Assembly: GCA_021496505.1 (NCBI GenBank)
Contig: CP053031.1
Coordinates: 3,340,001 to 3,404,000, forward strand
Source of the DNA: Thermoleophilia bacterium SCSIO 60948
Lineage (GTDB): Bacteria; Actinomycetota; Thermoleophilia; Solirubrobacterales; 70-9
Direction: 5' to 3'
Length of the DNA stretch: 64,000 bases
Shown: positions 29,800-35,108 of the stretch, piece after piece
How the letters are laid out: every line of letters starts with the position of its first letter
Numbering within the stretch: position 1 is the stretch's first letter
The notes under the pieces: generated by a model
What the model saw: the letters and a program-made list of their open reading frames with translations, nothing else
What the model was told of the DNA's origin: nothing
Databases searched by the model: none
Position numbers and translations under genes: made by a program

Positions 29800-30447
29800 T
29801 CAGTCCGCGGCGTCGCCGGGCCGGAGCAGCCCGAGCTCGTAGCCGCGGGCTACAGCGCTGGCGCGGTCGGAGGCGCCGAGCTTCGCGTAGATGTGGAGCA
29901 GGTGGGTCTTGATCGTCGCCTCGCTCACGAACAGCTCGCTCGCAGCCGCCGCGTTCGTCGTCCCGCGGGCGACCAGGCGCAGCACTTCGATCTCGCGATC
30001 GCTCAGCCGCTCGCCGGCCGGCTCGCGAACGCGGCCGATGACGCGCGAGGCGACGCTCGCAGCGAGCACCGACTCGCCGCGCGCCGCCGCCAGCACGCCC
30101 CTGAAGAGCTCGTCGCGCGGCGCGTCCTTGAGCAGATACCCGGTCGCGCCGGCCTCGATCGCCGGCAGGACGTCGGTATCGGTGTCGAACGTCGTCAGCA
30201 CGAGGACCGGCGTCTCGTCGCCCGCCTCGGCTAGCCGCCGGATCGCGCCGACGCCGTCGAGGACGGGCATCCGCAGGTCCATCACGACGACGTCCGGGCG
30301 GCGACGCTCGACCATCCGGATCGCCTCCTCGCCGTCGGCGGCCTCGCCGGCGACGCGAAAGCGGTCGTCCGAGCGCAGCATCCCGGTCAGCCCATCGCGG
30401 ACGACGGCGTGGTCGTCGACGACGAGGACGGACACCGGCTCGCTCAT
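29800..30447 (-). CDS. NarL/LuxR-family response regulator
   Basis: A 215-residue two-component regulator. The receiver domain has the acidic pair VVDDH, the phospho-acceptor in VVVMDLRMP (Asp57), the Thr in LVLTTFD and the Lys in LLKDAPRDE. A LuxR-type helix-turn-helix occupies about residues 148-205 (LSDREIEVLRLVARG, then SEATIKTHLLHIYAKLG). Phosphorylated by the kinase encoded directly upstream, it probably controls this ABC operon or related envelope genes. ATG 30447 overlaps the kinase stop as ATGA. The longer upstream frame is a shadow of the kinase. Confidence 0.93.
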   Translation of the reverse strand: MSEPVSVLVVDDHAVVRDGLTGMLRSDDRFRVAGEAADGEEAIRMVERRRPDVVVMDLRMPVLDGVGAIRRLAEAGDETPVLVLTTFDTDTDVLPAIEAGATGYLLKDAPRDELFRGVLAAARGESVLAASVASRVIGRVREPAGERLSDREIEVLRLVARGTTNAAAASELFVSEATIKTHLLHIYAKLGASDRASAVARGYELGLLRPGDAAD

Positions 30448-31718
30448 GCGCTGCTCCGCGTCGGCAGCGATGCCGAGACCGCGGTCCCGGTTCCGGTGCT
30501 CGATTCGACCGACAGCGTTCCGTCGAGCGACTCGACGCGGTCTCGCATCGCGACGAGACCGAACCCGCCCGCGTTCCCGTTCGCCTCCGGCGCTCGCCTC
30601 GACACCGGGTCGAAGCCGACCCCGTCGTCGCGTACGTCCAGGCTGACGCTCGCGTCCATGTATGAGAGCGTCAATACGACCCGCTCCGCGTCGGCGTGCC
30701 GCGCGACGTTCGCGAGCGCCTCCTGACCCGTGCGCAGCAGCGCCACCTCGACATCGGGATGCATCGAGCGGACCTCCCCGGTGCGCCTGACCGCCGCCGC
30801 CACGCCGTGGCGCTCGGACCACTCTCCCGCCAGCTTCTCCAGCGCCTCGGTCAGGCGCCCGTCCTCGAGCGGCTGCGGGCGCAGCGCCTGGATCGAGCGT
30901 CGCGCCTCGGCGAGGCTGCCCCGCGCGAGGCCGATCGCGGCGTCGTGATGGGCGCCCGCCTCATCGGGACCGGCGGTCCGAGCAGCCTCGAGCTGGGTGA
31001 TGATCCCCGACAGTCCCTGAGCGATCGTGTCGTGGATCTCGCCTGCGAGCCTCGCGCGCTCGTCGGCGACGCCGGCCTCTCGAGCCCCGAGCACGAGCTG
31101 GTGTTGCAGCGCGGCGTTCTCGGCCAGCGTGAGCTCGAGCCGCTCGTTGGCCTCGCGGAGCTGCGCGAGCGTCTGCTCGCGCTCCTCTCGCCGCTCCTCC
31201 TCGAGCGCCCCGGCCCAGAGGAAGAAGCCGGCGACGGTCGTGTTCACGAGGACCAGCCCCACGTAGAGGACGATCTGGCCCGCGCCGCCCCCGAGATCGC
31301 CGCCGATCTGACTGAGCGCCAGCGGCAGCGCGGTCAGGCCCACCCCCGCGAGGATCCACGTGCCGGGAAACGCCCGCAGCGCCAGGACGAACCCCGACCA
31401 GGCGAGAAAGCCGTAGAGCGGTGCGCCGAGGCAGGCGATCCACAGCAGCGTGGTGTAGACCGCGAACCAGGCGACGGGCACCGGTGCGAGCCTGACCGGT
31501 CGGCAGCGCGGCAGGACCACGAACCCGACCGCCAGCCACAGCGCGATCGCCGCGGCCATGCCAGCGACCCAGGTCGCCGAGACGTCACGTGCGCTCGGCA
31601 CCGCGAGCGCCAGGATCGTGGCGACCGCGAGCAGGCACGGCGCGAGCCAGCGGTCGAGGTTCGTGGCGCCGAACGGCCGGATCTCGGTCATGGAACGCCG
31701 TACGCCGATGCCCATCAC
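30444..31718 (-). CDS. Sensor histidine kinase, HisKA_3 type with polytopic membrane sensor
   Basis: A 424-residue kinase. Five or six hydrophobic helices fill about residues 20-165 with almost no extracellular loop, as in intramembrane-sensing kinases. A coiled coil (EEERREEREQTLAQL) links to the dimerisation domain with phospho-acceptor GEIHDTIAQGLSG, His near residue 229. The catalytic domain has DVRDDGVGFDP and GLVAMRDRVESL. Start is GTG 31718 or the adjoining ATG 31715, one or a few bases after the permease stop. This placement suggests it senses the state of the exporter or a membrane-active compound. Confidence 0.92.
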   Translation of the reverse strand: MMGIGVRRSMTEIRPFGATNLDRWLAPCLLAVATILALAVPSARDVSATWVAGMAAAIALWLAVGFVVLPRCRPVRLAPVPVAWFAVYTTLLWIACLGAPLYGFLAWSGFVLALRAFPGTWILAGVGLTALPLALSQIGGDLGGGAGQIVLYVGLVLVNTTVAGFFLWAGALEEERREEREQTLAQLREANERLELTLAENAALQHQLVLGAREAGVADERARLAGEIHDTIAQGLSGIITQLEAARTAGPDEAGAHHDAAIGLARGSLAEARRSIQALRPQPLEDGRLTEALEKLAGEWSERHGVAAAVRRTGEVRSMHPDVEVALLRTGQEALANVARHADAERVVLTLSYMDASVSLDVRDDGVGFDPVSRRAPEANGNAGGFGLVAMRDRVESLDGTLSVESSTGTGTAVSASLPTRSSA

Positions 31719-31719
31719 G

Positions 31720-32451
31720 CTACTCCCAGCGGAAGTTGACGGCGGCGACGATCGTGGCTCCGACGGCCCAGACGGCCATCACCGCGAGCAGTCCGGCGTC
31801 GGGGAACGAGCCCGAGGACGCCTGGCCGATCGCGCCGACGGCGGCGCCGACCGGAGTCAGGTCGCTGATCTGGACGAGGGTGGCGCCCATCTCCTCGCGC
31901 GGGATCCAGAGACCGCCGAGGAACATGAACGGGAACCACAGCAGCGGACCGATCGCCCCGGCGAGCTTCGCCGTCGGCGCCAGCGCCGCGACCAGCATCC
32001 CGACCGCGAGCAGACTGGCCGTGGCGAGTGCGACCGCCGCGACCCAACCCGCCGCCGAGCCGGGCAGCGCCACGCCGAGGGCGAGATTGCCCACGACGGT
32101 CACCGCGACCACGGCCGTCAGGGCGACGACGGCGTTGAGCGCGATCTGCGAGACGACGAGGGCCGACGGGCTGAGCGGGGTGGTCCGGAGCCTGCGCAGG
32201 ATCCCGAGCTCGCGATAGCTCGCGAGGTAGCCCGGCATCACGATCAGCGCCATCGAGGCGATCGCGAACACGCTCAGCGTCGGGACGAAAACGTCGACGG
32301 CGGAGAGTCCTCCGAGGTCGTCGGAGACGTCCCGGGCCTCGGGCATGAACGAGATGCCGATCAGGATCACGACCGGCGCGAGTACCCCGAGCAGCGACGT
32401 CGTCGGGTCGCGGCGCAGCAGCGTCGCCTCGGTTCTCAGCAGTCTGGTCAT
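31720..32451 (-). CDS. ABC-2 type exporter permease
   Basis: A 243-residue membrane protein with six helices in the ABC-2 arrangement: helix 1 near residues 20-38, a second near 55-75, and four more to the C-terminus. The family-conserved cytoplasmic segment ASYRELGILRRLRTTPLSP lies after helix 2, and PFMFLGGLWIPREEM before the last helix. With the ATPase encoded upstream it would export a drug, lipid or peptide as a homodimer. ATG 32451 overlaps the ATPase stop as ATGA. Confidence 0.9.
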   Translation of the reverse strand: MTRLLRTEATLLRRDPTTSLLGVLAPVVILIGISFMPEARDVSDDLGGLSAVDVFVPTLSVFAIASMALIVMPGYLASYRELGILRRLRTTPLSPSALVVSQIALNAVVALTAVVAVTVVGNLALGVALPGSAAGWVAAVALATASLLAVGMLVAALAPTAKLAGAIGPLLWFPFMFLGGLWIPREEMGATLVQISDLTPVGAAVGAIGQASSGSFPDAGLLAVMAVWAVGATIVAAVNFRWE

Positions 32452-33359
32452 CGTGTGGACTCCTCTCGGGTGTCGGTGAGTTCGAGGTAGGCGTCCTCCA
32501 TCGAGCGACGATCGATCCGCAGCTCGCGGGCCTCGGCGCCCTGCTCGGCGAGGGCGGAGATGACGGTCGCCACGCTGTCGGGCTCGAGCTCGATCGCGAG
32601 CTCGCCGGCCTCCGCGCTGACCGCTTCCACGCCGTCGACGCGCTCGAGCGACGCCGGGTCGACCGCGACGCTCGGTCGCAGACGCATCGTCTGTGTGCGC
32701 CCACCGCCGCCGAGCTCGGACGGCGGACCCGCCGCGGCGACGCGACCATCGACGATCACGGCGACGCGATCGCACAGCCGCTCGACCTCTTCCATCCCAT
32801 GACTGACGAGGACGATCGTCGTCCCCGCCTCGCGCGTCTCCTCGATCAGCGCCCAGACGTCGCGGCGCGCCCGCGGGTCGAGTCCCGTCGAGAGCTCGTC
32901 GAGGATCGCCACCTCGGGCCTGCCGACGAGCGCGAGAGCGATCGAGAGCCGCTGGCGCTGGCCGCCCGATAGGGCGCTGAAGCGCGTGCGGCGGACCTCA
33001 CCGAGACCGAGCCGGTCGACGAGATCCATGGTCGCGAGCGGGTCCGGATAGAAGGACGCGTAGAGGTCGATGGCCTCCTCGAGCTTGAGCCGCCCCGGCA
33101 GGGCGGAGTCCTGGAGCTGGATCCCGACCCGGCTGCGGAACGCCTGGGTCGCGGCGGCCGGATCCGTTCCGAGCACGGTCGCGGTGCCGCCGTCGCGCCT
33201 TCGCAGGCCGACGAGGCATTCGACGGTGGTCGTCTTGCCGGCGCCGTTGGGTCCGAGGATGCCGAAGATCTCGCCGCGCTCGACCTCGAACGAGACGTCG
33301 GCCACCGCTGTCTTCTCGCCGTAGCGCTTGCGTAGTCCGCTTGCTTCGATGACTGGCAT
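32448..33359 (-). CDS. ABC exporter ATP-binding protein (DrrA-like)
   Basis: A 303-residue ATPase. Walker A is GPNGAGKTTTVE, the Q-loop is IQLQDSALPG, the ABC signature is LSGGQRQRLSIALAL, Walker B is VAILDELSTGLDP and the switch His lies in VLVSHGMEEVE. The extra C-terminal 85 residues, with VDGVEAVSAEAGELAIEL, match the regulatory domain of DrrA/daunorubicin-type exporters. It is the first gene of a four-gene operon (ATPase, permease, kinase, regulator) in which each junction overlaps or abuts. A 24-bp palindrome lies 75 bases upstream. Confidence 0.93.
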   Translation of the reverse strand: MPVIEASGLRKRYGEKTAVADVSFEVERGEIFGILGPNGAGKTTTVECLVGLRRRDGGTATVLGTDPAAATQAFRSRVGIQLQDSALPGRLKLEEAIDLYASFYPDPLATMDLVDRLGLGEVRRTRFSALSGGQRQRLSIALALVGRPEVAILDELSTGLDPRARRDVWALIEETREAGTTIVLVSHGMEEVERLCDRVAVIVDGRVAAAGPPSELGGGGRTQTMRLRPSVAVDPASLERVDGVEAVSAEAGELAIELEPDSVATVISALAEQGAEARELRIDRRSMEDAYLELTDTREESTR

Positions 33360-33434
33360 GCCCAGAGGCTGCCGCCGGCCGCCCGGTCCGCCATCGGCGG
33401 GGCGGGCGGATGTGGCGCCCGAACCGCCGACCGG

Positions 33435-33458
33435 CGCATCAACCGATCGGTTGATGCG
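33435..33458. promoter_or_regulatory. Perfect 24-bp palindrome, probable operator of the ABC/two-component operon
   Basis: CGCATCAACC, centre GATC and GGTTGATGCG form an exact inverted repeat between the stop of a peptidase gene (33474) and the start of the ABC ATPase gene (33359). The inner part AACCGATCGGTT has the appearance of TetR-family operators. No loop beyond the centre and no T-run follow, so a terminator is less likely. No TetR gene is adjacent. Confidence 0.6.
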
Positions 33459-33473
33459 AGCGGGGGCTCCTCG

Positions 33474-34304
33474 TCAACCCCTGCGGGCGCCGCTCATCCG
33501 GCCGCGCAGCGCTCGGAGCTCGCGGACGTCGTCGCCCGGATCGTCGATCGCCGGTCGCGGGTCGTCGAGGCGCCTGGCGTCGAGGCGGCGCTCGGTGGCG
33601 CCGCCTTCTCCGTCGGGCTCGACCCTGAAGACGTCGGCGCCGTCGACGGCCTGGACCACCTCCGCCGGCTCGCGGCCCCTGAACAGGATCCCGGCCTGGT
33701 CGGAGAGCGCGTAGCCAGGCCCGAGGTCGCCTTCGCCGACCGCGCTCAGGTAGGCCGGGCGACGATCCGGGTCGCGTCCGAGGTGAACGCAGGCGCTGCC
33801 CGGCAGCAGCCCGAGGCCAGGCGCCGGCCCGGCGTCGCCGCGCGAGCGCGTGATCCCGCCCTCGAACCAGCACATCGCGCCGGCGCTGAGCCCCGCGAGG
33901 ACGACCCCGCGCCGCCAGGCCCGGGTCAGGATCTCGTCGAGTCCGTGGGCTCGCCAGATCGCGATCAGGTTGACGAGGCTGCCGCCGCCGACGTAGATCA
34001 GGTCCTGCGCGAGCAGATGCTCGGCGAGCTCGACCGGTTCGGATTCGAGCCGGAACAGCGACAGGTGCGAGAGCTCGCAGCCCGAGGCGCCGAGCGCCGA
34101 GTGGAAGGCACGGATCTGCTCGTCGGGATCGCCGCTGGCGGTCGGGAGCAGGCAGATCCGCGGTCGCTCGGATTCGAGCTGGGCGAGCATGTAGTCGCGA
34201 AGCGCCTCGTTGCCGCGCTTGCGCGAGAACTCGTGCCCTCCCATCGCGAGAATCGTGCGTTCGTTCTCGGCGACCGTCTCCGCATCGCCGCCCCCGGACG
34301 CCAC
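33474..34304 (-). CDS. Peptidase S51 (dipeptidase E/cyanophycinase-like), copy A
   Basis: A 276-residue serine peptidase of the class I glutamine-amidotransferase-like fold. The nucleophile elbow is LAGLSAGAMCWFEGG, and IYVGGGSLVNLIAIW carries the glycine-rich strand. The catalytic His lies in SACVHLGRDP. Family members cleave Asp-X dipeptides or cyanophycin. GTG 34304 directly abuts the stop of the tandem paralogue upstream. Residues 1-12 are low in similarity and a second start at MGGHEFSRKRG, near residue 21, is possible. The pair forms a two-gene operon. Confidence 0.82.
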   Translation of the reverse strand: MASGGGDAETVAENERTILAMGGHEFSRKRGNEALRDYMLAQLESERPRICLLPTASGDPDEQIRAFHSALGASGCELSHLSLFRLESEPVELAEHLLAQDLIYVGGGSLVNLIAIWRAHGLDEILTRAWRRGVVLAGLSAGAMCWFEGGITRSRGDAGPAPGLGLLPGSACVHLGRDPDRRPAYLSAVGEGDLGPGYALSDQAGILFRGREPAEVVQAVDGADVFRVEPDGEGGATERRLDARRLDDPRPAIDDPGDDVRELRALRGRMSGARRG

Positions 34305-35108
34305 CTAGGCGGCCGAGAGCCTGCCCGGCAACTCGGCCGCCGGGAGGCTCGCGCTCGCCTCGCCCTCGGTGACGAGCGGCGGGAGCAGCGGGGTCGCGAG
34401 CGGATCGCCGAGGAACCGCGTCGCGAGGCGGGTCGTGCGGACCTTGCCCTTCATGCAGTCGAGACGATACGCCCGCGCCTGCGGTCGCGAGGCGACGACC
34501 TGCGCGACCTCGGTCCCGGTCCAATGCAATGCGGCGCCGTCGTCGACGGCGTAGCCCGGGGGCATGCCCTCGACGAGCCAGCGGTGGTAGGCCTCGCGGC
34601 GCGTCGGCTCGCTCGAGTAGTGGACCGTGTTCGAGTACGGCAGGAATCCGAGCCCACGGATCCGCTCGATCGGGCCGTGGAAGTTCGAGACCCCCTCCTC
34701 GAACCAACACAGCGAGCCGGCCGAGAGACCACAGATGAGGATGCCGCGCTCCCATGCCTCGCGCAGGATCTCGTCGATCCCGTGCGCCTTCCAGACGCCG
34801 AGCAGGCTCGCGACGCTGCCGCCGCCGACGTAGATCAGGTCCTGGGAGAGCAGGTGCTCACGCGGCTCGGCCGGGCAGCGCTCGCGCCGGAACAGCGACA
34901 GGTGCGAGGCCTCGGCGCGCTCGCCCGAGAAGGCGCGGTAGAAGCGGACGATGTAGTGGTCGGCGTCGCCGGAGGCGTGCGGCAGGAAGCAGACGCGCGG
35001 GCGCGCCTTGCCGGTCAGGTCGAGCACGAACTCGTCGAGCAGGCGGTTGCCCGGCTCCATCGAGAAGCCGCCGCCGCCGAAGGTGACGATCTGGCGCTGA
35101 TCCTCCAT
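34305..35108 (-). CDS. Peptidase S51 (dipeptidase E-like), copy B
   Basis: A 267-residue paralogue of the next gene. It begins RQIVTFGGGGFSMEPGN, the standard start of this family, then IYVGGGSVASLLGVW, nucleophile ICGLSAGSLCWFEEG and His in NTVHYSSEPTRREAYH. It is closer to typical actinobacterial peptidase E than copy A, which has shortened loops. ATG 35108 is divergent from the ZIP transporter gene with 130 bases between. Likely cytoplasmic role: breakdown of acidic dipeptides. Confidence 0.87.
   Translation of the reverse strand: MEDQRQIVTFGGGGFSMEPGNRLLDEFVLDLTGKARPRVCFLPHASGDADHYIVRFYRAFSGERAEASHLSLFRRERCPAEPREHLLSQDLIYVGGGSVASLLGVWKAHGIDEILREAWERGILICGLSAGSLCWFEEGVSNFHGPIERIRGLGFLPYSNTVHYSSEPTRREAYHRWLVEGMPPGYAVDDGAALHWTGTEVAQVVASRPQARAYRLDCMKGKVRTTRLATRFLGDPLATPLLPPLVTEGEASASLPAAELPGRLSAA

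What the first reader, a model, noticed from the sequence alone, without database searches (positions are those of the whole stretch)
29800..33460. Exporter with its own two-component system behind a perfect 24-bp palindrome
ATPase, permease, kinase and regulator overlap or abut at every junction and sit behind an exact inverted repeat (centre AACCGATCGGTT). Transporter-kinase modules of this kind sense the compound they expel, but they usually use LuxR sites; the TetR-like palindrome suggests a second, unlinked repressor.
Basis: partly seen in the sequence, partly recalled or inferred. Interest (0 to 1): 0.55.

Follow-up and report, generated by a model that had tools for sequence, protein, structure and literature searches.

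The report
Exporter operon with its activator site
A bacterium carries a small drug-type export pump together with its own sensor, and the mirror-image DNA word in front of it is most likely the docking site of that sensor's own gene activator, because the same word at the same kind of spacing is kept in front of related sensor operons across the Actinobacteria.

Summary
In detail: four minus-strand genes (ABC ATPase, ABC-2 permease, histidine kinase, NarL/LuxR-type response regulator) overlap or abut, behind a perfect 24-bp palindrome at 33435-33458. The interpretation (TetR-like operator, second unlinked repressor) is not supported. The core ATCMACCG-NN-CGGTKGAT has NarL-type 7-2-7 geometry. 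It matches at 14 or more of 16 positions upstream of 68 of 91 related regulators (mostly Actinomycetota) and 0 of 91 downstream; 60 shuffled half-sites reach at most 6 of 91. It is kept in 8 of 11 untruncated loci lacking the ATPase, and absent in 9 of 9 related exporters without the kinase-regulator pair. Of nine exact copies in 232 genomes of the order, seven precede NarL-type regulator genes. Where the exporter start looks leaderless (36 of 63 loci), site centres lie about -67, -77, -88 or -110 from the start codon, about 11 bp apart, upstream of the inferred promoter; E. coli NarL activates from -44.5, -67.5 and -77.5. Best reading: the operon's own phosphorylated regulator binds the palindrome and activates its own exporter operon. 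Binding, promoter and substrate are inferred, not shown. Known kind of system; my open-access searches did not find this operator described.

The parts
33435..33458 (.). Perfect 24-bp palindrome; conserved 18-bp core ATCAACCG-AT-CGGTTGAT at 33438-33455; proposed operator of the operon's own response regulator
33366..33371 (-). Inferred -10-like hexamer CAGCCT at -12 to -7 of the ATPase start codon (leaderless start inferred)
   Evidence: inference from 36 of 63 aligned loci
32448..33359 (-). ABC exporter ATPase, DrrA-like, 303 aa
31720..32451 (-). ABC-2 type permease, DrrB-like, 243 aa
30444..31718 (-). Histidine kinase (HisKA_3/HATPase_c), hydrophobic segments in the N-terminal 170 residues
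29800..30447 (-). NarL/LuxR-type response regulator, 215 aa

Best explanation
The palindrome is the binding site of the operon's own NarL-type response regulator. The membrane kinase senses a signal at or in the membrane (perhaps the exported compound or the damage it does) and phosphorylates the regulator. The regulator dimerises on ATCMACCG-NN-CGGTKGAT and, from a phased position upstream of a leaderless promoter (centre -87.5 from the ATPase ATG here), activates transcription of ATPase, permease, kinase and regulator as one operon. Shown by sequence: genes, palindrome, conservation, co-occurrence, spacing. Inferred: that the regulator binds, that it activates, the transcription start, the signal and the substrate.
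For: (1) Core at >=14/16 in the 5.5 kb upstream of 70 of 93 regulators, 0 of 93 in the 5.5 kb downstream; without two near-duplicates 68 of 91 and 0 of 91, while 60 shuffled half-sites reach at most 6 of 91, mean 0.58. (2) In the order, 12 of 12 fetched orthologous modules with kinase and regulator score 13-16; 9 of 9 related exporters with no kinase/regulator hit in the fetched stretch score 10-11. (3) In 11 untruncated loci without an ATPase homologue upstream of the regulator, 8 still score >=14; in six opened, the site precedes a 136-281-aa hydrophobic ORF followed by kinase and regulator. (4) Site first: 9 of 232 genomes hold the exact core, once each, reversed control 0; five are this module, two lie roughly 30-45 bp before a distant (36% identity) NarL-type regulator gene, two have no regulator hit. 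(5) Central pair varies (AT in 57 of 78) while C3, C6, C7, G12, G13, G16 are 99-100%; the recognition helix is almost invariant. (6) 36 of 63 loci have A at -11 and T at -7 of the ATPase start (1.1 expected); site centres cluster about 11 bp apart, and at one distance per genus (n=22) phase coherence is 0.83 with 0 of 20000 random draws reaching the observed value. NarL activates from -44.5, -67.5, -77.5 (PMC7419079, passages).
Against: 9 of 93 loci score under 13 and 14 score exactly 13, which 7 of 93 downstream stretches also reach. 27 of 63 loci do not show the leaderless -10 pattern and 15 of 78 gave no start. The 80 named loci are the nearest hits of a capped scan, so relatedness inflates counts. 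A TetR-family protein binds the same centre. No binding or expression data exist here.
Confidence: 0.83

Rival explanations
1. The palindrome is the operator of an unlinked TetR-family repressor.
For: 38 TetR_N hits in the genome. The only other near copy of the 24-mer (3 mismatches) lies about 330 bp upstream of a TetR gene and before a sugar-transferase-like gene. The Thermus TetR-family protein TTHB023 binds CTGACCGATCGGTCAG (PMC7022988, passages).
Against: The site follows kinase and regulator across loci, also without the exporter; TetR-like genes lie within 6.5 kb in only 9 of 93 loci, at scattered places; the site is upstream of the inferred promoter, in helical phase; the 347962 site matches the 18-bp core at only 13 of 16, a level also reached in 7 of 93 downstream stretches.
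Confidence: 0.07
2. The own regulator binds the palindrome but represses, or both represses and activates, its operon.
For: NarL-type regulators can repress as well as activate (established knowledge). Conservation of the site does not itself give the sign.
Against: Centres about -66 to -110 from the start, spaced by helical turns, fit activation; a repressor would more often overlap -35, -10 or the start.
Confidence: 0.08
3. The palindrome is a transcription terminator or RNA hairpin of the upstream peptidase S51 gene.
For: It begins 15 bases after the stop codon of the S51 gene (33474-33476) and is an inverted repeat.
Against: No T-run follows on the minus strand; conservation is of letters with a free central pair and is seen at operon heads with other neighbours.
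Confidence: 0.02

Closest known systems
Bacillus subtilis LnrJK-LnrLMN (linearmycin/amphotericin exporter with two-component system; PMC7472640, abstract and passages)
   Same: Kinase and response regulator beside an ABC exporter, regulator dedicated to the exporter promoter (LnrK acts only on lnrLMN in that paper).
   Different: There kinase and regulator come first and the exporter genes follow, with a promoter in front of lnrL; here ATPase, one permease, kinase, regulator behind one site. Substrate here unknown.
Escherichia coli NarL 7-2-7 promoters such as ogt (PMC7419079, abstract and passages)
   Same: REC + LuxR-type HTH regulator; inverted 7-base elements with 2-bp spacer; activates from about -44.5, -67.5, -77.5.
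   Different: Other half-site sequence; nitrate system; not an exporter operon.
DrrAB daunorubicin-type ABC exporters (TIGR01188, TIGR00025)
   Same: Best NCBIfam hits of ATPase and permease.
   Different: Scores below the curated cut-offs (218.8 against 312.45; 44.7 against 146.9); no drug substrate known.
Thermus TTHB023, TetR-family fatty-acid regulator (PMC7022988, abstract and passages)
   Same: Palindromic site with centre ACCGATCGGT.
   Different: Flanks CTG/CAG instead of ATCA/TGAT; its sites typically overlap core promoters; it is a TetR protein, not a response regulator.
Response regulator ChrA (PDB 4yn8, best solved relative of the regulator)
   Same: Same regulator family; recalled, not from a call: a Corynebacterium protein that controls the HrtBA haem exporter.
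   Different: Different exporter type (recalled); its site was not compared here.

Membership tests
NarL/LuxR-type response regulator | Receiver domain plus GerE helix-turn-helix | tested here: met
   Response_reg 98.9 bits (cut-off 30.2), GerE 58.3 (23.5)
NarL/LuxR-type response regulator | Phospho-acceptor Asp and partner residues | tested here: met
   D11-D12, D57, T85, K107
NarL-type 7-2-7 site | Inverted 7-base elements with free 2-bp spacer | tested here: met
   TCMACCG-NN-CGGTKGA, centre pair variable (AT 57 of 78)
NarL-type 7-2-7 site | Bound by the regulator | not testable with these tools
   needs footprint or bandshift
HisKA_3 histidine kinase | HisKA_3 with phospho-His motif and HATPase_c | tested here: met
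ABC-2 exporter | ABC ATPase plus ABC2_membrane permease | tested here: met
   (ABC2_membrane 81.4 bits, cut-off 26.9)
DrrA/DrrB drug-resistance exporter | Scores above the curated NCBIfam cut-offs | tested here: not met
   218.8 < 312.45 and 44.7 < 146.9
MadR/MadS family of NCBIfam | Scores above the curated cut-offs | tested here: not met
   163.6 < 300 and 109.9 < 500
TetR operator | A TetR gene linked to the site | tested here: not met
   9 of 93 loci within 6.5 kb, scattered; none in the 64-kb window by the same home-made model
TetR operator | Site overlaps the core promoter | tested here: inconclusive
   the inferred promoter lies downstream of the site, but no start site was mapped

The most novel reading that the evidence does not exclude
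One lineage of NarL-type kinase-regulator pairs, spread through Actinomycetota and found in at least one Chloroflexi bin (L187, 15 of 16), has kept a single operator word (ATCMACCG-NN-CGGTKGAT) at helically phased distances from leaderless promoters while its cargo was exchanged (exporter or a small membrane protein): a portable sensor cartridge whose targets could be read from DNA across very many genomes.
Probability: 0.55. Interest if true: 0.55.

Novelty: new member of a known kind. Interest (0 to 1): 0.42.

Why it matters
Exporters with their own NarL-type two-component system are common and mostly unstudied in antibiotic-producing Actinobacteria (established knowledge). A conserved operator with fixed geometry gives a direct handle: promoter fusions in laboratory Streptomyces could report the inducing compounds, and the word lets one list operons ruled by the same regulator type. 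It also corrects an easy mistake: a clean palindrome in front of an exporter need not mean a TetR repressor.

Tried and rejected
Rejected: (a) TetR operator, see rivals. (b) Terminator: no T-run, letters conserved. (c) Regulon in the own genome: with <=2 mismatches to the 18-bp core only one further place (1910994, 2 mismatches), and the reversed control also has one, so no regulon is claimed. (d) A third half-site downstream: 29 hits of >=6/8 at offsets 5-7 among 78 loci; suggestive, not used. (e) Literature: core words searched as text (10 papers listed, two of them opened for passages) and by topic; nothing matching this operator was seen in the listings or opened passages. Only open-access papers are held, so this is no proof of absence. 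PMC12623338 (passages) reports a NarL-family regulator, CrsR, with no motif found.

Mistakes corrected: (protein 3) and the permease was given in a wrong frame; one search's tally of 3 of 232 is void and was replaced. In one search one row (L071) was out of frame; one search replaced it. The opening script used the same wrong permease frame.

Rows dropped before counts: near-duplicates L113 and L117 (91 of 93). For the column table and spacing, also L152, L162, L176, L200, whose best match was weak or not at an operon head (78 of the 84 with score >=13). L023 was left out of the control ATPase list; L115 has only about 136 bp upstream and is not counted among the nine exporters without regulator; L103 (contig ends before kinase and regulator; 13/16) is not counted either way. 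The 27 other ATPase loci score 9-11, but I did not check that each lacks a regulator.

Full report
What is there. Searches confirm four minus-strand genes in translational contact: an ABC ATPase (33359-32448), an ABC-2 permease (32451-31720), a HisKA_3 histidine kinase (31718 or 31715 to 30444) and a NarL/LuxR-type response regulator (30447-29800). Two junctions are 4-bp ATGA overlaps; the kinase starts one or four bases after the permease stop. The 24-bp palindrome at 33435-33458 is exact. It is the longest perfect one in the window, where 0.06 are expected, and its centre is unique in the 3.42-Mb genome. It lies between the stop of a peptidase S51 gene and the ATPase start.

Is it conserved. 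Same-family genomes lack a close copy of the module (best permease match about 32% identity), so I used orthologous modules from other families of the order. Their ATPase upstream regions hold the same word. A scan of named genomes with a regulator alignment gave 593 confirmed stretches, of which the best 80 were kept. With 12 order loci and the window this makes 93 loci. The core ATCMACCG-NN-CGGTKGAT reaches 14 or more of 16 in the 5.5 kb upstream of the regulator in 70 of 93 and in the 5.5 kb downstream in 0 of 93. Without two near-duplicates it is 68 of 91 against 0 of 91; sixty shuffled half-sites reach at most 6 of 91. The misses are real: 9 of 93 score below 13, some on truncated contigs and some with altered spacing, as in Micromonospora loci L128 and L130.

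What does it follow, exporter or regulator. Three tests agree on the regulator. First, within the order, 12 of 12 modules with kinase and regulator score 13-16, and 9 of 9 related exporters with no kinase or regulator hit in the fetched stretch score 10-11. Second, of 11 untruncated loci in which no ATPase homologue lies upstream of the regulator, 8 still carry the core at 14 or more. In the six I opened, it precedes a hydrophobic ORF of 136-281 residues followed by kinase and regulator; of these ORFs, the L192 copy matched no Pfam and no NCBIfam family, the L163 copy no Pfam family and the L205 copy no NCBIfam family. Third, searching for the exact word first, 9 of 232 genomes have it, once each, with no hit of the reversed control. 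Five are this module. Two (G203, G205) lie just ahead of a distant NarL-type regulator gene (36% identity). Two (G075, G188) have no such gene in the fetched stretch.

Geometry. Across 78 aligned sites the outer letters are near invariant and the central pair is free (AT in 57 of 78). This is the 7-2-7 arrangement described for NarL (PMC7419079, passages). The regulators' recognition helix is nearly constant, as one word for all would require.

Position. Aligning ATPase starts, 36 of 63 loci have A at -11 and T at -7 from the start codon (1.1 expected from composition), as for a -10 element of a leaderless gene. In these 36 the gap from site to ATG falls into groups at 56-60, 68-70, 77-80 and 101 bases. 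If transcription starts at the ATG, the centres are about -67, -77, -88 and -110. Three Solirubrobacterales-type loci of the order (L112, L116, L153) sit at a gap of 34 (centre -43.5), but their -10 is offset by one base and they are not in the 36. Taking one distance per genus (22 groups), phase coherence at 11 bp averages 0.83, and 0 of 20000 uniform draws reach the observed value. Relatedness between genera is not removed by this. E. coli NarL activates from -44.5, -67.5 and -77.5. In the window the gap is 78 and the centre -87.5, with CAGCCT as the -10-like hexamer.

The TetR reading. The genome has 38 TetR_N hits. The single near copy of the 24-mer (3 mismatches, G000:C1:347962) lies about 330 bp upstream of one of them. 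It matches the 18-bp core at 13 of 16, which 7 of 93 downstream stretches also reach, so it is weak. TetR-like genes are within 6.5 kb of only 9 of 93 regulators. The Thermus TetR-family TTHB023 does bind a word with the same centre (PMC7022988), so only an experiment excludes this reading.

Mechanism proposed. The kinase has several hydrophobic N-terminal segments and no large extracytoplasmic domain by hydropathy, which suggests sensing in or at the membrane. It phosphorylates the regulator, which binds the palindrome as a dimer and activates the whole operon, so that exporter, sensor and regulator rise together. B. subtilis LnrJK-LnrLMN is the nearest studied analogue I read about (PMC7472640, passages): there the regulator's only target is the exporter operon, and the exporter damps the signalling. 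Substrate and signal here are unknown.

Verdict. An ordinary kind of system with a well-supported, testable operator; the second-repressor idea is not needed.

Noticed in passing
33474-34304 and 34305-35108: Two adjacent peptidase S51 (cyanophycinase-like) genes on the minus strand, probably a tandem duplication, just upstream of the exporter operon.
   Followed up: no
445-466: A second long perfect palindrome, GCGTTCGCCGATCGGCGAACGC (22 bp), near the window start.
   Followed up: no
L036 1501-1524 (G000:C1:347962-347985): Near copy of the 24-mer (3 mismatches) between a TetR gene and a sugar-transferase-like gene.
   Followed up: partly
L112 3596-3615, L113 13352-13371; exact sites in G203 and G205 (L238, L239): A related word (TTCATCCGATCGG..GAA or the exact core) just ahead of a second, distant NarL-type regulator, hinting that several regulator lineages of the order share this operator type.
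   Followed up: partly
78 aligned sites: A possible third half-site (ATCMACCG-like) 5-7 bases after the core: 29 hits among 78 loci.
   Followed up: partly
29800-33359: The module is patchy: no close homologue in same-family genomes, best orthologues in another family of the order; gain by transfer or repeated loss.
   Followed up: no
L192 5226-5669, L149 5401-5811, L191 5395-5826 and others: A hydrophobic protein of about 140 residues (no NCBIfam or Pfam match for the L192 copy) stands in place of the exporter between the site and the kinase in several loci.
   Followed up: partly
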